From positions 733,188 through 797,187 of the forward strand of contig ML769385.1 of the NCBI GenBank assembly GCA_009733575.1: 64,000 nt of DNA, written 5' to 3'. The position numbers and the translations under genes are program-made. The number at the start of each line of letters is the position of its first letter. Position 1 is the first letter of the stretch. Source of the stretch: Gymnopus androsaceus JB14 (taxonomy: Eukaryota > Basidiomycota > Agaricomycetes > Agaricales > Omphalotaceae). Shown in pieces: positions 19,673-58,605 of this stretch. The notes under the pieces were generated by a model. That model was not told where the DNA came from. It ran no database searches and was given only the letters and a program-made list of their open reading frames with translations.

Positions 19673-19776
19673 TAGTTGCATGCCGTGCCGCAGTATAATG
19701 TCATCGATAATTAGATTAGATTAGAGCTTGGTTAATAAGTGTCATCATCATCTTGTCCTCCTCATCGTCGACAGCG

Positions 19777-22700
19777 ATGACGGACACTTCTACACCGCCT
19801 ACTCGTCCACTTCGTCCGACTCGCACCGCGCCTCTTCCTCCAGACGTTTCCCCTGCAGAAATTCCTCGAACTTCGTCTCCCGAAAGCAAGCCTTTAGACC
19901 AAGATCCAGACCCTCATCCTGCTGAAGAGGTCCTTACGCCTCTTCGCGCACATTATCTCAAGAAATCTCTAATCCAGCTCGAATTCGAGCGTGAACTTGA
20001 TGATATCACTACCTCGGCTCCAAATAATGTTTCTACCTTTTCATACCTAGGTCCTCCCTTTAATCCTCCTCCAAAGGAGGCCCCACCCATCGATCTACCA
20101 TTTTTGCGATTCATGTTTCGACAGTTTGTTCTTACATTTCCCTTCATGGCTTCAGCACCCAGCAACTTTTATTCCGACAAGCTTCAACCCTTCATGGGCG
20201 CAATGTTCTCCCGTAATCTCACTGCTGGTTCTGTCTTTGACGACAGTGACGAGGGCGATCAATCGAGTACTCGATTGAGTGTCCTTGCACGTTTAGAACG
20301 GAACCTCTCGCTTTTTGTAGGGGCCGCCACGAAACTGGTCGAAGACGAGGAAGTTGTTCGTCTTAATCAGTCGGATCTTGATCACTTGGAAGACTTGGCG
20401 AAAAAGAGGGAGGCGCGGAATTTGAAGCACAAGGATATTTTCGAGGTGAATATTGTCAGTGTCAGGACTGTCGTTGACAAGGGCCGAGTCCGAAGTAGAG
20501 CCCATGAGGTCAGGACTTTCTCTCTCTCATTCTTTGGAATTATCTCAAATGCTCTTAGGAATTCATCATACGAACTCGGAGGTCCGACCAACAAGACTTG
20601 TTCGTTTCCAGAAGATATGGGGACTTTAAAACACTGGCCAATGAAGTCCGTGTCAAACATCATTCTCTGAAGACGTTAACCTGATGTCCAGAATGTATAT
20701 AGCTGCGGAAAGCACATCCCCAGGAAGATGTAAGCCCACCGCCTGCCAAGGATCGGACTACGGTCAATCTACCGTCTTCAACATCGCCCTTGAGTCCATC
20801 GTTCGCGCAGCAATCTTATGAAGCAGACTACCCGGAATCTCCTGCTTATCAGCACTCGAACAATCCTTCTCGGCTCGCGAGGGAGAAGAACCGCCTCACT
20901 TTGAGAGCTTATTTACATTCCTTGTTATCATCTCCTACAATTGCCTCTTCTCCAGTCCTGAGATCATTCCTCTTGTCAGGAACGACGTCTCTTAGCCAGG
21001 AAGAGTTGGAAGATGCTCAATGGCGGGAGGAGGCAGACCGGATGCGGGAGGAGGCACGAAAGAGGTTTGCGCGAGAGATTGCTTCTCGCGTCGACAGCCT
21101 TCGGGGTGCCGTGAAAGATATGAAGGGTGACATTATGGGCCCAGGCAAGTTTGCGTACGTGTTACTTACAAATTTAAAGCTCACATCGCTCATTGCAGAT
21201 GGACTCACGCATGTCTTTGCCACCATCAAGGAGACCCCCAACGTACGCGATCTTCCCCCCAATTACCACGCTGTCCTTGAGTGGGCTCGAATATCGTGAG
21301 CCCTCACTATTTCCTACATCTCATTTGTATACTGATTACACGTACGGATATGTTTAGGCTAGCTTCCACGGTGTTTCAACAGCTAGTCGCCTCGGATAAT
21401 TCTTCACAAACGTTCGCAAGCTTGAAGCGTCTTCATGGGTTAATGCCATATTTTATGATGAAAGCTGCACTCAAGATTAGCAATCCTATGGGCATGATTC
21501 GAAGTATGTATGTCACAATTTTGATAATTCAATCTACTTATTCTGCTGCTCAGCTCTCTTGGATCTATTTCTTGCGCAGCCTTTCGGAGGGAAAAGTCTG
21601 CTACAAAGGTCTCCGTCTCTATCATGTTTGGTGCTACAATCACTCAACATCTCTTAGGATGTTTACAGGATCTTTGACCGAGGAAGTTAAAGCACTCGAG
21701 GAAGATATCGAGGCTGTCAAAGCCAAGGTCGACGATCCCGTATTATGCGAGAAGATTAAGCGTTTTGTCGACGCTCCTAGGGAGATTCAAGATACTTTTA
21801 AAGCTGATGCTGGTGAGTCTTTTGCAGATCGTCCCGACATTCCCAGATCTGATCCGCCTTCTTAGTCGCCGAGAACCACAATCTCCTGACGGTCGTCTTA
21901 CGGTCGGGCGAAGAGCCTGTTCTCTCTAGGGCCCAGCTTCATCGAGTGGCCAAGGCGCATCGGGCACACGCGGCGTATATGAAGCATCGGGAGGCTTTGG
22001 ATGATTCAGACGATGATGATGGACCACAAGACGATGATGCTTGGTTGTATGAGGACTTGAAGGTGCTTGGACACCTGTACTCGCGCTTGAAGGACCGAGA
22101 GCAATTGATTGCATTGATTTTCGAAGTGAGTTGCTTTACCCGAAGCTGGGTCGCCGCTCAAACGACCTTTATGCTAGGGCTTTACCTCCGAGTTGCTGAA
22201 GGATATCATAACGATATTCTACTCCCCTCTAGCACAAGTTTACCGGGCGGCTAGTATAGCCGATTCTATTGGTGATCTTCAGAGCTTTATCAATGACCTT
22301 ATCAAGACGGTGGAGCAGAGCGAAGATTGTACGCATAGTAAAATTTGTTTTGTCGAATTGTTCTGACTGGTTGGTCGTCCACAGTGACTCAGGAGGATCC
22401 AAACCGTACCGTGCAAGCTTTCATTGACCTCATACAGCGACACGAGCAGTCTTTCTACAGCTTTGTTCACAAGGTGCATTCAAAGGGCGAGGGGCTGTTC
22501 GACAGTCTAATGCGCTGGATCGAGCTATTTCTCACCTACATGCGCGAAGGATTTGGCCAGCCACTCAGTCTCGAGTTTCTACTTCCTCACAAGGGCGCGG
22601 AAAGGGCAGAGATTTTAGCAGAAGTGGATAAGGTGGCTTTGTACCACTACAAGCTGAAACTTTTATATGAAGACAAGCTAAGACGGCGGTTTGGTCGAAG

Positions 22701-23533
22701 TCAAGCCCAAGGAGATGCGGACGCTGAAGATCAGGCAACGAAGGCGCTGGTTGATGGTGTGGTGGGAGAAATCAGCTTTGGGGATCTCATTCAAGGTGAT
22801 GCAGACGACTTGGCTGCCGAAGACGCAGATGAGGAAAGCGGTGAAGAAGACGAAGAGGAATATGAATCATCGAGTGAATACGAAACTGGTTCGTCAGAGA
22901 CGGACTCTGATAGTGAAGAAAGTGAAGAAGCTTCACCTCCACCTCCACCTCCACCCCCGAAATCTGCAACTAATGATCTACGACGTTCGCGTACATCCGC
23001 TACGCAGGCGCCTTCATCACGCTCTTCGAACACGAGAGCTGGTAGCCGGCCACCCGAAGTGCGCCGTCCTCGTCATGATTCATTCCCTTTGAAGACTTCA
23101 CGCTCGATGACTGCAATGAACCAACACCCTCGACACAGTCACGATATATCGAATGCTCCGCCCGTCCCCGCTCTACCTAGAAATCCTCATCTTATTGCTT
23201 TATCCAAACCACTACCACCTAGTCCCTCACCACATTCATCTACCGAACGCTTTGAACAACAACAGAACCATCTAGACCTTCCATAGACTCTAACTCTCGT
23301 CCAGAAAAAACGAAGAAGCGCAGGACGAAAGGCAAGCAGGTACTGAAACCACCAGAGTTGAGCGTGTATACCGACGTTGGTGCCAGTATTCAAAGAGATG
23401 GTGAGCCCTTTGTTTGCATTCACCTCCCTTCCGAGTATGACCCACTAAATGATGCATTTCAGATGCGCCCTCTTCTACGTCCACGACAGAGAACACGGAC
23501 TTTGACGCCTTCTCCTCCCCGCTCATGATTTAA
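19777..23533 (+). CDS. PXB-PX-DUF3818 lipid-binding protein
   Basis: Peripheral membrane protein of the fungal YPR097W (Lec1) type: PX-associated domain, PX phosphoinositide-binding domain, then a long DUF3818 helical domain. Start ATG 19777 (MTDTSTPPTRPLRP). The PXB part includes YLKKSLIQLEFERELDDI; the PX part, spread over several exons, reads FVSRRYGDFKTLANELRKAHP. DUF3818 blocks include DGLTHVFATIKETPNVRDLP, QRMFTGSL and DPNRTVQAFIDLIQRHEQSF. An acidic stretch and a Pro-rich tail follow. One intron (21145-21198) has a GC donor, CAG|GCAAGT, is 54 nt long and fully open, so retention would add 18 residues. Near 23268 the frame changes; a 65 nt intron with a weak GTCCCT donor or a one-base error would restore it to the end at TAA 23531-23533. 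Confidence 0.85.
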
Positions 23534-23755: not shown

Positions 23756-24424
23756 ATGTCGGCCTCGACTTCTATGGTGGGGATAACTTCCAACCATAAC
23801 AGCCAATCGATGACAATGCAAGCGGATCAGAATTCTATCCAATTATTCAAGCATAATATTCAGGTCATCCTTGAAAACGTGCTGAGCTTGCAGAATGTAG
23901 CGAGGAACACTTTGCTTGGAATGTGAGTACTCGTATCTGGAATCCGACGGTGTTTTAACAATGTAAAACTTGATACAGCCAAAATGCGTATCATCCAGGA
24001 AGCTCGCCTACTCAGACCGAAGGTTTGTTGTTCTTCCTTTTCAAATCTACCACAGGCGAATGTATTTTTGTATAGCCAACATCGTAGCTTTGAAGCAGAA
24101 TCTGGAAATACTTGCCGATCTGAGGTGCGTCTACGTTCGCATCCATTCGTTCCATCGACCGACGAAAACATGTCCAGCGTTCATACAGGCGTTGGAGCGC
24201 TCCCTTTACTTCCTTTCCCCCCCGTTCCAACACATACCCATCCAAATTCATTACACGACCCGTCATCTTCTGCAGAAGAAAGCGCAGTTCCTTCGGAAGC
24301 GCAAATGATAACTGACACGGATCGCTCCATTCAAATATTGTTCGAGAGATTAAAGAGGGTGCAGGAAAGTGCAGGGACTGTTGCAAATTTACTTCAAGCT
24401 CCTACAACTAACGTTACACAGTAA
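23756..24424 (+). CDS. Small coiled-coil protein, unknown
   Basis: Not identified with confidence. Four exons read from ATG 23756 (MSASTSMVGITSNHNSQ) to TAA 24422-24424, about 165 residues. Two helical stretches (LFKHNIQVILENVLSLQNV and IVALKQNLEILADL) flank a short loop; after a Pro/His-rich spacer comes a third helix (SIQILFERLKRVQESAGTV). The helix-loop-helix size and composition recall small Mediator-type subunits, but I see no diagnostic motif, so this is only a suggestion. Introns all have clean GT-AG ends. It converges on SPB4, with 25 bp between the two stop codons. Confidence 0.6.
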
Positions 24425-24449
24425 AAGTACTTGTAGTACTAAAAAGCAT

Positions 24450-26853
24450 CTATAAATCGCCAAACTCTGCATCGAAAGCTTTTCGAGAAATATCCCCTCT
24501 ACGCACTTTCTTCGCCATTCTCTCTTCTCTAGCGATTTCCGACCAGTCCTCCTCGTCATTACTATCCGCGACATCCTCGTCATCATTACGGGCACGTTTG
24601 AGATCCTTCTGAGCAACTTCAGATGTGGACTGGGTCTTTAACCATTGTTTCTTCCTCTTTTTCTTCTCTTTCCGTACTTCCCGTTCGTCTCGTTTTCCAG
24701 CCTTTTCACTCCATGAAGCGTTGGCTTTCTTCTGGTCTGCCCGCTGGATCCTCCGCTGTTCCTGTTCCTTTTCAATTTTCTCCGCAGATTTGGTTGCTAA
24801 AGTGGCAAGGCGTTTAGCCTCTTGTGCTTTATCGGCATATGCGTAGCTGGACCACTGTATTGTATTTGTTTCAATATGGACCCGATAGAGAGATATCAAG
24901 TAACTTACGTCGACATCAGCATCGCTCCATTGATCCTTGTTCACATCCTTGAGCTCTGGCATCTTCGGTAGGCGAAGTAACCCAAAGCTTTTAGCAAGAC
25001 CAACAATATCAAGGTCTTTGAGTCGGAAAATGTATGAAGCTTCGTGCTTTGAATAAGCCCGTATAAATGAGACGAAAGCTTTGGCGGACTGTAGGAAATT
25101 GATTGGCAAATCGATGCAAATTCACAATGAATTCATACCTGATCGTACAAAGTTCGATCCATCAGCAGCTTTTTCCTAATCTTTTCAAGGAAGACGACGG
25201 TATCGGAATCTTCAGGACGTGATACATCGTCTACATCCATCTCACCATCCTTGGAGAGATATCGATGCTTCTGTAGAGGTATTCTACGAACAGTCATAAA
25301 GTCTGGACGAGAAACGTTAACGGAAATCAAAAGTATTTGGTGACGATGAGACTGACCTACGTAGCCCACTTCCCGATCTACTAGGAGGGTATATGCACGC
25401 CCACTACGCCCTGCGCGCGCCGTACGACCACAGCGATGTGAGAAAACCTTTGGATCCGTAGGGGGGTCGTACTGAATGACAACATCTACGTGAGGTAGAT
25501 CGAGGCCCCGAGCAGCGACATCTGTGCAGAGAAGGATAGATGGAGAAGAGGGAGTGCAGATGGATGTGGAAAATGCATTTAATGCGCGTGTTCTAGCCGA
25601 TGGTGTTAAATGGCCATGAAGAGAATGTATGCTTGATCCAGAAGGAAGGACAACAGGTAAAATCTGATTGAAAGTTAATGCAAGATAACCGAGAGCTCGT
25701 AAGGACTCACATGGTAGAAATAGTCAACGCAGGCACCTGTTGCAAAGTAGACAATGAATTGGGAGGCCTGATGTTCCTTGATTTCATGAGATATTATGCG
25801 GGCCAGTTGAACGGTCTTTTCAGACGCTTCACAGGAAATGTAAAAGTTTTGCAGGCTAGGAAAATTGTGAATATGGATGCAAGGGAAAAAGATGATACAT
25901 ACTTGGCGGGTATTCGTCTTTCCTCTATTACCTGGCTCTGTGGCTGCCCTTCGACTTTCGGCTGTTGTTTCTTTGATTGGACTTTGACGACGATACGCGC
26001 CGGATTTCTCAATCCCACCCGTACGAGTTCGGATATTGCATCGGCATCTGTCATAGTTGCGCTGAACAAACCAGTTCGGCGCTGTTTGGGCAGGTGAGTT
26101 AGGATTTTGGTCAAAGTCGCTTGGAATCCCAAGTCTAATAATCTGCTATCGTTAACGAAAGGAAGGCACAGTAGACTTGAGAGCATACCGATCAGCCTCG
26201 TCCAGGACAAGCACTTCGAGCTCTTTCACGTTAACCACGCTCCGTCCTCTTCCTAAGAGGAATTCTTCGATTCGGCCGGGTGTTCCAATAATTATATCAG
26301 CTCCCGAAGACAGGAATCGCTCTACATCTTGAGCAGGTGAAGACTGATTGGACGATACAAGAAGTAGAGGAGGTGGGTGTTCAAGTGAAGGTGTCTCATC
26401 CGGATCTTCAGTGGTCTGCAGCACAGGTTGGGCAGAAAGGAATGTAGCGAATATGCCGTGAATCTGAGTCGCCAGTTCTCTGAGACTTGCTGTAAAGATC
26501 CAAGAGTCAAAAAGAAGTGGAGTGCGCACACCTTGTAGGAGTAATTATCAGTGCTCCAATGTCATTTTTGCGCAGTTTGCTCTCTCTTCTAATGAGTTTT
26601 TCAAGCACTGGAATCACAAAAGCCAGTGTTTTTCCTGATCCAGTCACAGCTTCTACTACAACATCTTTATGCTTCATGAATAGAGGAATTGTTGAAGCCT
26701 GAACAGGTGTCATTTTTGTATGGCCCAAGGATTCTATAACGTCCAAACTAAGCTTGGGATTACTTTCAAGTGAGAAAATTCAAGGTAAGCAACGTACATC
26801 CATGGTGTTAGAGATATTGGCAGAGAATTGAAGCCCGCAAAAGCTGTCGACAT
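24450..26853 (-). CDS. SPB4: DEAD-box ATP-dependent rRNA helicase Spb4
   Basis: Nucleolar RNA helicase of the Spb4/DDX55 group, needed for 60S subunit maturation. Start ATG 26853; Q-motif region [12 protein letters not shown], Walker [13 protein letters not shown], motif Ib [15 protein letters not shown] box LVLDEADR, motif [14 protein letters not shown] and motif [18 protein letters not shown] are all present in order. The C-terminal Spb4-specific part includes [20 protein letters not shown] and [20 protein letters not shown], followed by a Lys/Arg-rich coiled tail ending FGDL at TAG 24450. About nine exons. Head-to-head with the RING E3 gene across 154 bp. Confidence 0.93.
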
Positions 26854-27007
26854 GAGCGGAAATTTTTGGAATCGGATCGAAGAGCCGAAGGATTGCCTCA
26901 CTCTGCCTCACCGATCGCGTGACCCTGATCATTCTTGGAGCTTCTAAAGGCTTCTGCAACTCATTCTCCTCATCCCAATCCAGTCCGATTCCTTTTAATA
27001 AATCGTC
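26854..27007. promoter_or_regulatory. Short divergent promoter SPB4 / RING E3
   Basis: Only 154 bp separate the two start codons, so both promoters must overlap. The stretch is mixed in composition, with a GATCGCGTGACC segment near its middle; no TATA box is obvious. Confidence 0.45.
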
Positions 27008-28688
27008 ATGTCTTCAAGGGAGCCTATGTGGTTTTGCCATCAAGTACGTCTGCGCTCTTATCCAGCATATTTACTTGGCTGAGTAATCCCTTCGGACCAG
27101 TGTAACGCAGAGATGCGACCTCTTCTGGTTAAAACCCTACACTTCTTTCAGTCATTTTCCTGTATTCAAGCTCTTTATCCAGGTCCCGGATCCAGTATGT
27201 GCCTCCTGCAACGGTTCTTTTGTAGAAAAGGTTCGCCACATATGCTGTAAGCGGACGCTGCGATGTTCAAAGACCTGCTACAGATAGAGGATCCCGAAGA
27301 TGACCCTCGAGAATTCCATCAAGGGGAACCATTAGAGGAGGACGCCGCGGTAGATCCTTTCCTTAGTACGCCATTACTGCTCGATGTTTCACCAGCGTCC
27401 TCATCCTTTGCCCAGTGCTTATGCAAGGTCTTATGAACCGTGGCATGTCCGAAGGAGGTCGGCCTTTATCTCCACGTAGTAGATCGCAGCCGGCAAATAA
27501 TTCATCGGTAGCTCCTACTCTGCTCGTATTTCTCCAAGTATTGACAGGTTTCAAAGTCGTTCTCGTTCCAAATCCGTGCCGGGACTGGCGGCCCCGCAAC
27601 TTTCACCGTGGGTGGACCCAGCACGCTTGGCGGCAACAGAAGAGGTCCAGATTCACCGGGAAGACCACCCAATATGACCGAGTACAATCTATCATCTCTC
27701 ACAGCTGCTTGACATTGATTTGGTCCTAGGTTTCTTCACAGAGGTGGGGATGATGCACCTGGTATTGGAGGACCGTTAATGGCTCAATATCTGATGGCTC
27801 TTCTTGGCCATCGGGGACCAAACTCTGATATATTTGGGCTTGGGGATGCAGCAGAACGCGGGAGGATGGGAGATTATGTTTTCAACCAGGAAGGTTCGTG
27901 TTCTCTATTCTAATGAGGAACGTTTCATGTTTAGATGGAATCGCAGCTTTGGATGAGATCATAACCAACTTGATGGAAAACTCGAATGCTTCTCGGCCGG
28001 TTCCAGCAACTGACGAGATAATAGATAAACTCCCTCGTGAAGTTTTGGAGACGGAATGTAAGTAGAGTGTTTCTTCCACTTGTCGGCTATTCACCTGCTA
28101 ACCAACTTTCAGCACCCATGCTTGAAAAGGATTGCGCCGTCTGCAAAGAACAATTCCAGCTAGGAACTGACGACCCCGATGAACAAATCGTCGTGTCATT
28201 ACCATGCGGTGAGGAAGTCTCTAACTATGCTCTAGTACACCTTCTAAACGGATTTTTCCTTTATATCAGGGCATCCATTCCATTCCCCTTGGTACGTCGG
28301 TCTTTTAACCAAACTCATCTGCTGAAGCCTAAGAAAATTTTCAAAGTATCCTTCCTTGGTTGAAGTCTTCTGGTACTTGTCCAGTATGCAGGTGGGTGAT
28401 TCTCAGCCTTGCTTCGAAGCCCAATCTCATTCTCCCAGACATCAACTTGTTCCTCAGCCTGAGCACCATCCTTTACCGCCTAGTGGATCCAGTCCTCCAG
28501 GAGGCAACCGCCCTTCACGGGCGGGTGGCGGTGGCGGGGCTGATGGAGGTTTCCTACAGTCCCTCTTCACTTCGATGGGAAGTGGCAACCCCAGGTCTTC
28601 TACTACTAGGCGTTCTTCCAATCCGTCCAATGGGCAGGGTGATGCAGAGCATCACCTTCCTGGAAGTTGGGACGATGAGCTCGATTAA
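27008..28688 (+). CDS. RING-H2 E3 ubiquitin ligase (RNF126/RNF115-like)
   Basis: Start ATG 27008. The first exons make an N-terminal zinc ribbon (FCHQCNAEMRPLL, then DPVCASCNGSFVEKIEDPED), the ubiquitin-binding module seen in RNF126/RNF115-type ligases. A disordered middle follows, then GPLMAQYLMALLGHRGPNSD. The RING-H2 finger lies over three exons: CAVCKEQF, VSLPCGHPFHSPCILPWL and CPVCR, with the C-x2-C, C-x-H-x2-H-x2-C and C-x2-C spacing. The tail is Pro/Gly-rich and ends GSWDDELD. Apparent frame changes near 27370-27410 and 27510-27550 disappear once introns of 50 and 40 nt are used. Predicted to transfer ubiquitin in the cytosol; substrates unknown. Confidence 0.88.
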
Positions 28689-53399: not shown

Positions 53400-56300
53400 T
53401 CACGGCCTAGACTGAGTCACTGAAGATGTACGACGTGGGGGCAAAACTGTGGGTAAAGCAGGCAAGCCTCCAGTAGGAGGAGGGGGAGGAGGAGGCATCG
53501 GGAACTCTTTCAGAGTCCTGAGTGAGAGTCGCGAGGAATGCGGTTCCGCTAATGAATTGAGTAATTAGCAAAATATCCACCCGAAAATATCAATCACTTA
53601 CTTTCTTCAAAAGCTCTTATTCTTTGTAGTACAACACTGTCTCTTTTTCGAGGCGCCAAAGGGGTGCTGATTGAAGGTGCTACAGGTCTTTGACCTACTG
53701 GAGCAGACCGCAGTGGACTCGCTTCTGCGACTGGAGCAAGACCACGATTACCTCGCATCGCAGTGGCGGAGGAAACCGCCCTTCTCAAGGGAGCTGGATT
53801 TGACAAGTCCAAATCTGAGGAAGAAGCTTGAGGCGCAATTGGCCCATTGCGCAACGACGTGCTTCGCATAGGCGGAGCGCTGGAAGGAGGTGCGACAGGC
53901 TCAAGGGTAGAGGCACGGAGGTTCGGTCGAGGAGGCAACCCAACGTGAGAACTAAGTGGTCGGGTGGCAATTGAACCAGACCTAGAGCGAGCAATAGGTC
54001 GGGATGGTTCGGGTGTGCGTGCACCTCGGGGTGATACAGGCGGCCGAGAAAAATTCCGCACTTCCAGGTTCAGTGAGAGGGTTTCAGAGGAGGGAGTACA
54101 CACTGCACCATCCGGGAATACTTCATCATGCAGACTACGGTGGGAACGATGCCCTCTGTGTGTTACAGCAATCTTCTTCGTGAACCCGCGTGTTTTGGGA
54201 AGCGTTCCGCTGGGTGTCGATACAAGACCGTCAGGGAAGACCTCAAAGTGAAGACTTTTGTGAGAGCGAACTGTCTTCAGTGCGGGCTGCATAGCTCTCT
54301 TGACAAGGTTAACCTTGGGCGGTGCGGCAGTGATGCCTCGAGAGGAGAGGAGAACCTTACGGAAAGGAACAGGATAGGGCATCAGAAATGGATATACCGC
54401 AGGATCTACAGAAGAGTGAGGTTGGCACAAGCCTGTAGGATTTGTAGTCTTACATAGATCAAAGATTGGGTAGCTCCATGCTAGTTTGACTACTTGCACA
54501 TCCGGAAGCCGTTCTCGCAAAACGGGAGGATGAACGTCGCCGGTAGGATAAGGCGTGACATGGGGATATACACCGGGGTCTAAAGACATATTTTCAGTCT
54601 GGAAAACGTGCTTTCAGGGCAAACTTACAGAGGTCAAAGATCGGGTAGCTCCATGCAAGTTTAAGCACTTGCACCTCTGGAAGCCGTTTTCGCAGAACCG
54701 TTGGGTAAATGTCGAAATCTGGGTAGCCGGAAGATCGACCCTTCGAGGTTCCGGGCTGAACAGCAGGGTCTGCACACTGTATGAGTATTATAAAGCAGAA
54801 CGTTTGATCATCGCAACCTACAAAGATCGAAGAAAGGGTAATGTACATCTTGAACCTGTTTGCGTAGGGTAGTCGGATAAATCTCAAAATCTGGATAGCC
54901 ACTAGCTTTCACGAGGCCTTTCGCAAGGGATCGGTTTTTCGCAGGATCTACACAATTGTATGAGCTTGACGAAGCAGAATATAGCCAAAATTATATACAA
55001 AGGTCGAAAAAAGGGTAATGCATTGCTGGCTTTGAGGACAATTGCTTGACAGAAGGGTACAGTTCAAACACCGGGTATCCGAATGAGCACCCGACATTAC
55101 TTGTAGGAGAGGGCACAGCAGGATCTAAACATGCATAAGGTTAATGCAATCCAGCGATACAACCTCAGGTACACTTACATAGGTCAAAGATCGGGTAATG
55201 TTTCATTCCCTGCACTTCCGAAAGCTGTTTTCGCAAGACGGGCGGATAAATGTCGAAATCTGGATACCCGCTAGATTTCACAAGCCTCTTAGCAAGTGAC
55301 TGATCCTTCATGGCTACTTTTGGATGAACAGCAGGGTCTACATAAATATATAAGCTCGGTGAGGCAGAAAGTGATCTCAGGTACTTACAAAGGTCGAAGA
55401 ACGGATACTGCACTGAAGGCTTCATCACAGATTTTGACGAGGACGACTGTTTAACTGAAGGATACAGTAAAAATGTTGGATATCCGAAAGAGTACCGGGG
55501 TAAAACAACTGCATTGCTAACAGGATAGGGCGCCGCGAAAGGGGTAGACCGCAGGATCTAAATAGCATAGCAATTTCAGTCCAGGGAGTTACATCGAATA
55601 AGCAGAACTTAAACTCACAAAGATCAAAGATCGGGTAGTTCCACACTAATTTAACCACTTGCACATCAGGAAGCCGTTTTCGCAAAACCGGTGGATAAAT
55701 GTCGAAGTCCGGGTAGCCACTAGTTTTCACAGTAATAGCTCCACTCTTCGTAGCTCCTGACTGGACAGCAGGGTCTGCAAATTGTTCAAAGTCATGAAGC
55801 AGGATGTAATCGTAGCAACCTACAAAGATCGAAGAAAGGATAATGCACGTCCCGAAGTTGTTTTTGTTGGGTAGATGGGTAAATGTCAAAATCTGGATAA
55901 CCACTAACTTTCACGAGTTCCTTAGCAAGTGATCGATTCTTCGTTGCTGCTTCAGTTTTTCCAGCAGGATCTGTACAATTGTATGAGCGTGATGAAGGAG
56001 AAAATCACTCAGATTAACTTACAGAGATCAAAGAAAGGGTAGTGCACTGAAGACTGGATAGCGGGCTTTGAGGACAACGATTTGACTGGAGCATAAATTG
56101 CAAACGTTGGATAGCCAAACGAGCGTCGGGTCAGAACAACATTATTGATAGGATAGGGCGTCGTGAATGGGTAAACCGCAGGATCTAAAGAGGGATTAGT
56201 AAGAAGCCAATATAAAAGCAGGAAGTCCTACAAAGGTCGAAGATTGGGTAGTTCCATGCTAGCTTAACCACTTGCACATCCGGAAGTCGTTTACGCAAGG

Positions 56301-58605
56301 CAGGCGGGTAAATTTCCAGGTTGGGATAACCATCAGCTTTCGCGAGTTTCTTAACAAGGGGTTGAGGCTCGGCGGGGTACAGATCAAAGTGTGGATACAC
56401 AGAAGGATCTATAATGTAACTCATCAGTAAAAACCTTTCATGGATTGAAGGGAGCAGAAGCATACAGATCTTCAATGAAGGATAAGCGCACGCAAGATGA
56501 ACTGATACCGGGGGAAGTCCTTGAACTGATTGCTGTTGTCCGGATGATGGATAGATGTTGAAGTCAGGATAACCACAAGAGCCCAGAGACTGCTCTGCAG
56601 TAGCCACAGAGGGATCTGTCATTCATGCTGGTGAGTAGATTTAAACCATAGTGAGGAGAAAGACTAACAAATATTAAATATGGGATACTCAGAAGTAACA
56701 CTCGAGGAAGGTATTTGGCTAGTAGCGAAGCTGTAAGGCCATGAATGGCCCCATGGTTTTGCAGTAGTGGAAGCACTGGCTGAGCTGTAGGGCCAGACCT
56801 GACCCCAAGGCATAGACGTAGCAGAACCACCGGCTAAAGTGTAGGGCCATACCTGACCCCAAGGCGTAGATGTAGTCAATGAATGCTGCTGCCAGTAGGG
56901 CCATCCCCAACCAGCACCTTCCCGGTAACATAAGATCATCAGAGTCAAAGGCTCGTTGTCCTGCGTCCGGAGTGTGAACATAGTAAGGCGTGGAGGGACT
57001 GGGGGGCCAAGAAGCAGGTCCCCACGATGTCGCTGTCATTGGAGTCGGGGGCGGACTGAAGATAGCGCGATCACCAATGTCGACTGAAGAAGCTCTGCTG
57101 AAACTCATCGGTGAGGCAGGGTATTCAGACGGAGGTCCCCACGACGTCGCGGTGCCAGGAGTAGGAGGGCAATCTTCGTACATTCGGTGGGCAATGTCCG
57201 GTGTTAATACGCGCTCCAAGCTGGGGACTGGTGATGGCAAAGTGTAATCCGAAGGACCAAACGATGTACAATCCGAGGGAGTCATACACACCGAGCTCTC
57301 CATACGACGTTCAAGATGAACGGATGGCAGACGATCCCACGACGCAACTGAACCATCTTCCCAGTCGTTTGGACCTAAGGAAGAGATTGACCATGTGAAA
57401 TCTTCCAAGTTAAGTTCCTCTTCCACTTCTGCGTCGGCAACATCATCCAAGGCCATACTAGTTGGGTAGATTGGCAGGTTCCAAGCTGGTTTGGCCTTTG
57501 ACCGCGAGGGCACTAGGTGTCAAGGAAGCACTAGCACGCCATGTGTTCACTCGTTTTTCGAGGTCTACGATCTTCGCAGTTTTCGGTTCCTCTTCTTGAA
57601 AAATCGGCGATAAAGCCTGAACTGAAGCAGAACGCTCCGGCGACGATGCCGATGTCTGATGAGTAGCCCTTGCCACCGCACGCAGTGAAGAGTCTAGTCG
57701 GTCCACTAATGACAATTTCCTTGGTACATGACGACTAGGGCGGCCAGACTGAGGAGACACGGATTCGCTATCGAGCTGGTCAAAGTTTATCTCGAGGTCT
57801 GTGGCCCTACTGTCCTCTCTATAGTGGGCTGCTACAGAGGGTGCGGCTGTAGAAAAGCCTACGGATGCTGGGACGTCTACGTGTTCTCTGTGAGCTGACG
57901 CAATCCAAGCTGAGTACCAACGAGCATGTCGTGTATCTATATCGAATTCCAATTTTCCAACGATAGGAACTCGCAACGAAGGGACAGATGGATCAAAGAC
58001 GTTACTCCAAATCATTTGCCAAGAATCATCGCTGATGCGAGGCATAGCAGTGATCCCATTCTCTGTAAAGTGAAAGTACAGACAGAGGCCTGTGATGCTC
58101 GGGAAATTGAACTCCTTCGCGATAGCCGCAAGCTGTCCGTACAACTACAAATATGTGTGAGAATTAGAACGGGACATTGTGAAAGTACACTTGCGGTAGG
58201 AAATAGAGGCATCAACATTCCCTGAGCCAAACGATGTCTCGGTCCCAGAGATAAGGTGTTACCCAGCTGACCGTGTTCATGAAGCAAAGTTGGAGGAGGA
58301 ATGACGACGACAAAAGATCTAGAGCTTCGCTGAACCGCTCTTTCCCGACTCTCCCGAAGACCTGAGCTGTGATATGCCAAACTTGACACTCTGCGAAAAC
58401 GAGCTCCTGCAGTCTCCGGGCTCTGGGAGCGATGTACAGGTTCCGCTTCTACATGCGGGTCCACTGGAACTCCACCTAAAACCGAAATGGTGGTCGGAAG
58501 AGCTGATCCCAGATGGTCGGACAATGTTTCCGGTGGGCTCAAGGGAATCCTTGGAAACTCGAAGGGAGAGGGTTTATGAAATGGTGACGCAGTGAGTCGA
58601 GACAT
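53400..58605 (-). CDS. Exon-repeat protein with YPxFDLYP modules
   Basis: Uncharacterised fungal protein of more than 1,000 residues. Start ATG 58605 (MSRLTASPFHKPSPFEF), stop TGA 53400. The N-terminal region (VVVIPPPTLLHEHGQLGN, LYGQLAAIAKEFNFPSITG, WQMIWSNVF, GKLEFDIDTRHARWYSAW) looks conserved and folded. A Ser/Pro-rich part with EDCPPTPGTATSWGPPSEYP and a second near-copy follows, then PWGxxWPY repeats, then eleven short exons built on YPxFDLYP motifs (56615-54454), and a Ser/Arg-rich tail. The first intron (58194-58145) has a GC donor. Three one-base breaks (near 57465, 56922, 55539) fall in homopolymers. No signal peptide or membrane segment seen. Function unknown; repetitive aromatic-Pro motifs suggest a binding scaffold. 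Confidence 0.8.
54454..56615 (-). repeat. Tandem array of eleven duplicated exons
   Basis: Exons on the minus strand: 56615-56466, 56408-56232, 56184-56023, 55970-55824, 55774-55619, 55557-55389, 55337-55179, 55124-54999, 54947-54822, 54769-54629 and 54579-54454. Lengths are 150, 177, 162, 147, 156, 169, 159, 126, 126, 141 and 126; only the 169 is not a multiple of three, by one base in a homopolymer. Every intron (47-61 nt) is phase 1: exons end in T and begin AT or AC. Three exon flavours cycle: A (YPAVYPF..PYP..SFGYPTF), B (KNRSLAK.LVK.SGYPDF) and C (SGYPDFDIYPPVLRKRLPDV). Confidence 0.9.
56720..56900 (-). repeat. PWGxxWPY coding repeats
   Basis: Just before the exon array, the same gene encodes successive copies of PWGQVWPY, PWGQVWPY and PWGHSWPY plus a degenerate GWGWPY, spaced by about 15-20 residues of Ser/Thr/Ala. 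The DNA of the first two copies is nearly identical (CCTTGGGGTCAGGT), a short tandem duplication. Confidence 0.8.

What the first reader, a model, noticed from the sequence alone, without database searches (positions are those of the whole stretch)
54454..56615. Eleven phase-1 symmetric tandem exons, each rebuilding a YPxFDLYP motif across its splice junction
Read directly: eleven exons of 126-177 nt, all multiples of three (one is 169, with an extra base in a homopolymer), separated by introns of 47-61 nt. Each exon ends with the T of a Tyr codon and the next begins AT or AC plus CC, so Tyr-Pro is always restored (YPIFDL|YPAV). Symmetric exons like this can be duplicated, deleted or skipped without a frameshift, so one gene could give many proteins. 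I do not know a described function for this family.
Basis: partly seen in the sequence, partly recalled or inferred. Interest (0 to 1): 0.9.

Follow-up and report, generated by a model that had tools for sequence, protein, structure and literature searches.

The report
Mushroom gene with exon-built motif array
A fungus closest to mushroom-formers has one gene with eleven near-repeated exons whose predicted splice joints each rebuild a Tyr-Pro motif; traces of the same joint turn up in related mushrooms, and the number of motifs differs between species, which likely tunes how many partners a predicted disordered scaffold protein can hold.

Summary
On the minus strand, eleven phase-1/1 exons (126-177 nt; one, 169 nt, leaves frame) are separated by 47-61 nt introns, and all 12 junctions rebuild Tyr-Pro. 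They belong to one gene (53.4-58.6 kb) for a ~1,400-residue protein without Pfam match. The 120 listed homologues (108 named, all Agaricomycetes) carry 0-27 YPxxxLYP octamers, 1,681 in all against 1.45 by shuffling. Introns at equivalent places resemble each other and exon copies have dN/dS 0.07-0.28, so exon-plus-intron cassettes were duplicated and kept under selection. Twelve 'retained intron' scars in nine other predicted proteins put an intron at the same Tyr codon elsewhere in the class. A near-identical spliced 372-aa protein, probably from an RNA contig, supports two array junctions. Octamer number differs in 52 of 74 close pairs. AlphaFold gives a small folded head and a disordered array. 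Best reading: a disordered multivalent scaffold whose valence evolves by symmetric exon duplication. Many proteins by exon skipping is untested and less likely. Three frame changes leave this copy's integrity open. The partner is unknown; a Bro1/ALIX-type YPX3L docking array is the boldest testable option.

The parts
53400..58605 (-). Whole gene, predicted ATG 58605-58603 to TGA 53402-53400; protein of about 1,400 residues
   Evidence: tblastn with orthologues P0002, P0005, P0007; ORFs; stop
57900..58320 (-). Approximate extent of the conserved N-terminal folded domain (interrupted by one intron ending at 58145)
   Evidence: conserved columns; AlphaFold of orthologue P0038, residues ~91-230, 10-residue block pLDDT 60-97
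56669..57460 (-). Linker with TPxTATSWGPP and PWGxVWPY repeats, ending in YPIFNI at the first array junction; frame changes near 57455 and near 56918
56466..56615 (-). Array exon E1 (150 nt, divergent)
56232..56408 (-). Array exon E2 (177 nt, type A)
56023..56184 (-). Array exon E3 (162 nt, type B)
55824..55970 (-). Array exon E4 (147 nt, type C)
55619..55774 (-). Array exon E5 (156 nt, type A)
55389..55557 (-). Array exon E6 (169 nt, type B, leaves frame near its 5' end)
55179..55337 (-). Array exon E7 (159 nt, C/A mix)
54999..55124 (-). Array exon E8 (126 nt, type B)
54822..54947 (-). Array exon E9 (126 nt, type C)
54629..54769 (-). Array exon E10 (141 nt, type A)
   Evidence: 3' part and junction to E11 matched by P0243
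54454..54579 (-). Array exon E11 (126 nt, type A)
   Evidence: both junctions matched by P0243
53602..54405 (-). Exon E12: last array piece, two HxSLHxEVFPDG repeats, conserved KRDSVVLQRIRAFEE stretch
53400..53548 (-). Last exon with polyproline (PPPPPPP)

Best explanation
This is one fungal gene whose eleven symmetric phase-1 exons are duplicated copies of a few exon-plus-intron cassettes, each predicted splice joint rebuilding one YPxF(D/N/E)(L/I)YP-like motif, and the encoded protein is likely a disordered, multivalent scaffold whose number of binding motifs would change in evolution by gain or loss of whole exons. Shown by calls: exon phases, repeat types, intron similarity, purifying selection between copies, class-wide conservation, and varying octamer number in predicted proteins. 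Predicted: the array is disordered and the N-terminus folds as a small alpha/beta domain. Inferred: the folded head and short conserved elements place the protein, the Tyr-Pro octamers act as repeated short binding or self-association motifs, and valence is set by exon number rather than by regulated skipping. The partner is not known.
Confidence: 0.6

Rival explanations
1. Splicing diversifier: cells include or skip array exons in a regulated way, so that one gene makes many proteins.
For: Ten of 11 exons are symmetric and skippable in frame. Exon-skipping junctions in coding regions do occur in Schizophyllum commune: 1,527 in one count of PMC5034255 (passages).
Against: No isoform seen; P0243 shows canonical order for E10-E11-E12. 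The same paper gives exon skipping as 1% of coding-region events among its called transcripts. Introns of 47-61 nt suggest intron definition (established knowledge), which disfavours skipping. A duplicated symmetric array is symmetric whatever its splicing.
Confidence: 0.07
2. ESCRT docking array: each YPxFD(L/I) is a YPX3L-type ligand for the V domain of a Bro1/Rim20 (ALIX-like) protein, so the array is a many-site dock for that adaptor.
For: Position 6 of the octamer is L in 52% and I in 46% of 1,681. ALIX binds YPX3L motifs such as YPLKSL in P2Y1, X being any residue (PMC4907476, passages).
Against: Strong constraint at position 4 (F 72%, L 21%) is not asked for by YPX3L, and the octamer pattern that I counted requires the following Tyr-Pro; Ile is nearly as common as Leu. 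Presence of a V domain in this genome could not be tested. No binding data.
Confidence: 0.1
3. Septal or polarity structural protein: the array is a cohesive disordered element at an Agaricomycete structure such as the septal pore cap.
For: Named homologues are Agaricomycetes (108 named of 120, 21 named of 64; Tulasnella checked, the rest by recalled taxonomy); large disordered share; proteins with disordered regions take part in septal plugging in other fungi (PMC10023807, passages).
Against: No localisation evidence. The paper reports septal disordered regions biased to Arg and His and poor in Lys and Gly; the window array has R 3.2%, H 1.8%, K 6.4%, G 4.1%.
Confidence: 0.15
4. Decaying copy: in this strain the gene is a pseudogene with three frame changes, and the array is a relic.
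For: Three frame changes without room for introns; none seen in the paralogue of the same genome against P0122.
Against: Exon copies keep dN/dS 0.07-0.28 (which would not detect recent loss); no other locus carries the array in the genome; the near-identical P0243 is open through the last exons, though it does not cover the changes. Assembly errors would look the same.
Confidence: 0.15

Closest known systems
Undescribed Agaricomycete 'hypothetical protein' family (e.g. Rhodocollybia butyracea BDP27DRAFT_1446230; named 'salivary gland secretion 1' in Lentinula edodes P0011 and Moniliophthora roreri P0014)
   Same: Same head, linker repeats and octamer array; 1,282 bits to P0001, 51% identity over 81%. 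The window gene is a member.
   Different: Array order and number differ; this copy has three frame changes.
Symmetric class 1-1 exon repeat genes such as tropoelastin and titin PEVK (recalled)
   Same: Many short same-phase exons, each adding a disordered peptide module; growth by exon duplication.
   Different: No homology claimed; here the intron cuts through the motif at a Tyr codon, and skipping is not shown.
YPX3L / LYPXnL ligands of ALIX and Bro1 (PMC4907476, passages)
   Same: Core YP-X3-L is present in the octamers.
   Different: 22 copies in the window model, extra conserved Phe, Ile almost as often as Leu; binding untested.
Shorter paralogue family with a similar N-terminal domain (contig 6 locus L013; P0121-P0240)
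   Same: Similar motif order in the head (PTLQAQLxAIAKEY...PILAKVEFDIDRRKAxWY).
   Different: No octamer in 120 of 120 listed members; lengths 419-746, a range bounded by the search's length filter.

Membership tests
Agaricomycete YPxFDLYP-array family | Conserved N-terminal domain with PRISDESW and GKIEFDIDxRxARWY | tested here: met
   tblastn 79% identity to P0005 over its residues 139-367
Agaricomycete YPxFDLYP-array family | Tandem YPx[FL]x[LI]YP octamers in the C-terminal half | tested here: met
   22 octamers in the window model, two counted after an X at the E6 frame change; family counts (112 of 120 with five or more)
Agaricomycete YPxFDLYP-array family | Phase-1 intron inside the Tyr codon of the octamer | tested here: met
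   12 of 12 window junctions; 12 clear scars in nine of 184 other proteins. DNA of orthologues was not available, so the feature is untested in most members.
Bro1/ALIX YPX3L ligand | YP-X3-L core | tested here: met
   Position 6: L 52%, I 46% of 1,681 octamers; strictly with Leu about half
Bro1/ALIX YPX3L ligand | A V-domain partner in the genome | not tested
   The PF13949 search did not complete
Bro1/ALIX YPX3L ligand | Binding to the V domain | not testable with these tools
   Needs a binding assay
Septal pore disordered proteins (SPP/SPA type) | Large disordered region | tested here: met
   712 of 908 residues under pLDDT 50 in orthologue P0038
Septal pore disordered proteins (SPP/SPA type) | Arg/His-rich, Lys/Gly-poor disordered region | tested here: not met
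   Window array R 3.2%, H 1.8%, K 6.4%, G 4.1%, no background set compared; bias as stated in PMC10023807 (passages)
Septal pore disordered proteins (SPP/SPA type) | Location at the septal pore | not testable with these tools
   Needs microscopy
Ubiquitin-like beta-grasp domain (N-terminal head) | Fold match to ubiquitin, PB1 or RA domains | tested here: inconclusive

The most novel reading that the evidence does not exclude
Agaricomycetes evolved a splice-built ESCRT dock: a disordered protein with up to about 27 YPX3(L/I) sites that gathers Bro1/Rim20-type adaptors, where each junction site exists only if its intron is removed, so that exon gain and intron retention both set how many adaptors are held.
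Probability: 0.07. Interest if true: 0.8.

Novelty: new variant of a known kind. Interest (0 to 1): 0.5.

Why it matters
It is a mushroom protein family, found across many Agaricomycete orders, without a Pfam match for the window protein and without a paper in the searches made here, in which one short Tyr-Pro motif has been multiplied (usually 5-27 copies) largely by exon duplication in the case studied. It offers a natural series for asking how motif number changes a disordered protein's behaviour, and a case where an intron position inside the motif can be followed across orders. It also flags a misleading database name and gene models with retained introns.

Tried and rejected
Chance repeats: rejected. 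Known domain: no Pfam hit at E up to 1 in three pieces of the protein (the pieces leave out parts of the linker, part of the array and about 30 residues before 57461); the profile of 66 orthologues found one weak PDB sequence, E 0.82, '4D2 (mutant T19D)', discounted. Snowball (SNB1) as the same gene: rejected; it is described with seven transmembrane helices and DUF6533 (PMC10949477, passages). Secreted 'salivary gland' protein: the phrase was held by three papers, on Drosophila, human and cockroach salivary glands by their abstracts (listing), and the predicted N-terminus does not look like a signal peptide (own reading, no predictor run). Explaining the frame changes as introns: the candidates would remove residues conserved in orthologues, so rejected near 57455 and 56918. 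Viral-contig scan for further DNA loci: 38 stretches matched a pattern, none a relative. SPB4 as an assembly-quality control: three frame searches gave aligned blocks in two frames but intron positions were not resolved; inconclusive. Second fold (paralogue P0165): low confidence, mean pLDDT 51.9, similar order of elements; not searched for folds. In the fold lists no family is excluded by its absence. Literature: searches; no listed title or abstract describes this family. Papers opened, passages only: PMC10949477, PMC10023807, PMC4907476, PMC5034255.

Rows dropped before counts: four of 16 scar matches (P0055, P0075, P0259, P0285) as ambiguous; window exons E6 and E12 left out of the best-match count; E6 left out of dN/dS, and 11 chosen exon pairs tested there, not all. 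Module counts use modules of 25-90 residues from 113 of 120 proteins. Only the best 120 of 236 and of 231 hits were visible. The query left out about 30 conserved residues before 57461, because I had then taken a candidate intron there. Alignment A1 used 66 of 120 homologues, A2 44 of 120.
Full report
What is there. On the minus strand of 53.4-58.6 kb lies one gene. Scanning for its splice sites gives eleven internal exons between 56615 and 54454 of 150, 177, 162, 147, 156, 169, 159, 126, 126, 141 and 126 nt, and twelve GT...AG introns of 47-61 nt around them. All twelve joints have the same form: the exon ends in the T of a Tyr codon, the intron follows, and the next exon begins A(T/C)CC, so Tyr-Pro is rebuilt. 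Ten exons are multiples of three; E6 (169 nt) is not.

The gene. Orthologues align from an ATG at 58605 to the end of the protein; the stop is at 53402-53400. The predicted product has a conserved head, a linker with TPxTATSWGPP and PWGxVWPY repeats, the octamer array, two HxSLHxEVFPDG repeats, a conserved KRDSVVLQRIRAFEE stretch and a polyproline end. Three pieces gave no Pfam match at E up to 1. In its own 83.3-Mb assembly the array was found only here: 8 of 8 scored matches fall within the locus (the tool scores only its best candidates). The head has one weak second locus on contig 6 (two matches, E 0.039 and 0.227).

Relatives. A full-length search found 236 proteins, of which the best 120 are listed. 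By my count 108 of the 120 carry species names, all Agaricomycetes by recalled taxonomy; the best is Rhodocollybia butyracea (51% identity over 81%). A search with the array alone found 64 proteins, 21 of them named, again Agaricomycetes, among them Tulasnella and Ceratobasidium (Tulasnella checked as Cantharellales). The octamer YP...[LIVMF]YP occurs 1,681 times in the 120 proteins against 1.45 in shuffles; position 4 is F 72% or L 21%, position 5 D 44%, N 23% or E 13%, position 6 L 52% or I 46%. Octamers per protein: median 13.5, range 0-27, 112 of 120 with five or more. The eight with fewer are five Schizophyllum commune records, P0055, P0075 and P0107. A recurring larger unit is an 18-residue doublet of consensus like YPxFxLYPAVYPHFDIYP, 541 times in 111 of 120 proteins. 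In the window the intron sits inside this doublet, after its sixth residue.

The same joint in other species. If a T|GT...AG|AY intron is left in, Tyr-Pro becomes Cys-...-Asp-Pro. Scanning 184 proteins (120 plus 64) gave 16 candidate scars in 13; I keep 12 in nine that end in Asp-Pro followed two residues later by the expected Tyr-Pro. The scar needs Cys at that position: with an Asp-Pro end there are 13 with Cys against 0-3 for each other residue except Tyr, which is the intact motif (21). The implied introns are 48-57 nt, the same size as here. Named carriers are Lentinula, Favolaschia, Guyanagaster, Arthromyces and Amylocystis, i.e. Agaricales and Polyporales (recalled). P0298 carries four in a row and is closest, at 34.5%, to Phellinidium pouzarii (Hymenochaetales, recalled). 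This argues that the exon border inside the octamer is old and shared.

RNA-level support. P0243 (source jgi, contig of 1,324 nt) is identical to the spliced window model in 366 of 372 residues and runs without a break across I10 (49 nt, with a stop in frame), I11 (48 nt) and the last intron (53 nt). It is therefore a spliced product. Most simply it comes from a transcript contig, although a splicing-aware gene caller on genomic DNA cannot be excluded, since the genomic span of about 1.27 kb would also fit. All six differences lie in its first 98 residues, on the array side.

Fold. AlphaFold on orthologue P0038 with 66 sequences gives a confident region at about 90-228, a helix at 327-343 and pLDDT below 50 for 712 of 908 residues, nearly all of the array included. 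The head looks like a small alpha/beta, possibly beta-grasp, domain, but no Foldseek match has E of 0.001 or less and VIA Z stays at 7.7 or less with many tied types: inconclusive.

Mechanism. The best-supported part is evolutionary: symmetric exons let whole motif modules be gained and lost in frame. The functional part is inference: a folded head plus many short similar motifs in a disordered chain would work like other multivalent short-motif scaffolds (FG nucleoporins and the RNA polymerase II tail are recalled examples), so exon number would set valence. In S. commune exon skipping is reported as 1% of coding-region events and intron retention as the commonest; but a junction-based count in the same paper lists 1,527 exon-skipping events in coding regions, so the point is one of likelihood (PMC5034255, passages). 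In the window, retaining an intron meets a stop in 8 of 12 cases, shifts frame in 1 and stays open in 3 (I1, I6, I11), where it would replace the Tyr by Cys and destroy one octamer.

Partner. The octamer core fits YPX3L, the ALIX ligand (PMC4907476, passages). The fit is formal only; the extra constraint at position 4 points to something more. The genome search for a V domain did not complete in six tries.

Caveats. Three frame changes, near 57455, near 56918 and in E6, cannot be explained by introns without losing conserved residues. They may be assembly errors or real damage; the contig 6 paralogue shows none against P0122. The window model's count of 22 octamers reads past E6 with an X, two of the 22 lying after it.

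Noticed in passing
window 57450-57465, 56910-56925, 55389-55557: Three frame changes relative to orthologues that no intron explains; assembly error or damaged allele.
   Followed up: partly
window 58145-58194: The first intron fits the orthologue alignment (FPT then M/LYGQL) best with a GC-AG donor (GCAAGT) rather than the GT donor two codons on; inferred from the alignment end at 58195.
   Followed up: no
window 56670-57190: The same protein has two further short repeat kinds before the array: TPxTATSWGPP and PWGxVWPY.
   Followed up: no
L013:2023-4109 (own genome, contig 6): Paralogue with a similar head but no array; an ORF about 2 kb away looks like a chitin synthase (own reading of L013:6275-6694).
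   Followed up: partly
P0105 and P0116 (Schizophyllum commune records): Predicted proteins differ by 59 residues in length, with a stretch holding one doublet missing from P0105 at an array joint: strain difference or annotation.
   Followed up: no
P0243 against window 53400-54668: All six amino-acid differences fall in the array-side first 98 residues, none in the remaining 274.
   Followed up: no
P0119, P0242, P0257, P0272 C-termini: These four members from outside the Agaricales (recalled) end in an (A/S)KLDxxK(F/Y)-like motif that the window protein lacks.
   Followed up: no
P0001 and P0107: Two homologue records list Pfam domains (PF19063; PF17681 and PF04130), possibly fused gene models.
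   Followed up: no
window 24400-27400 and 19720-23283: Neighbours include an SPB4-like rRNA helicase (minus) and a PX-associated-domain protein (plus).
   Followed up: no
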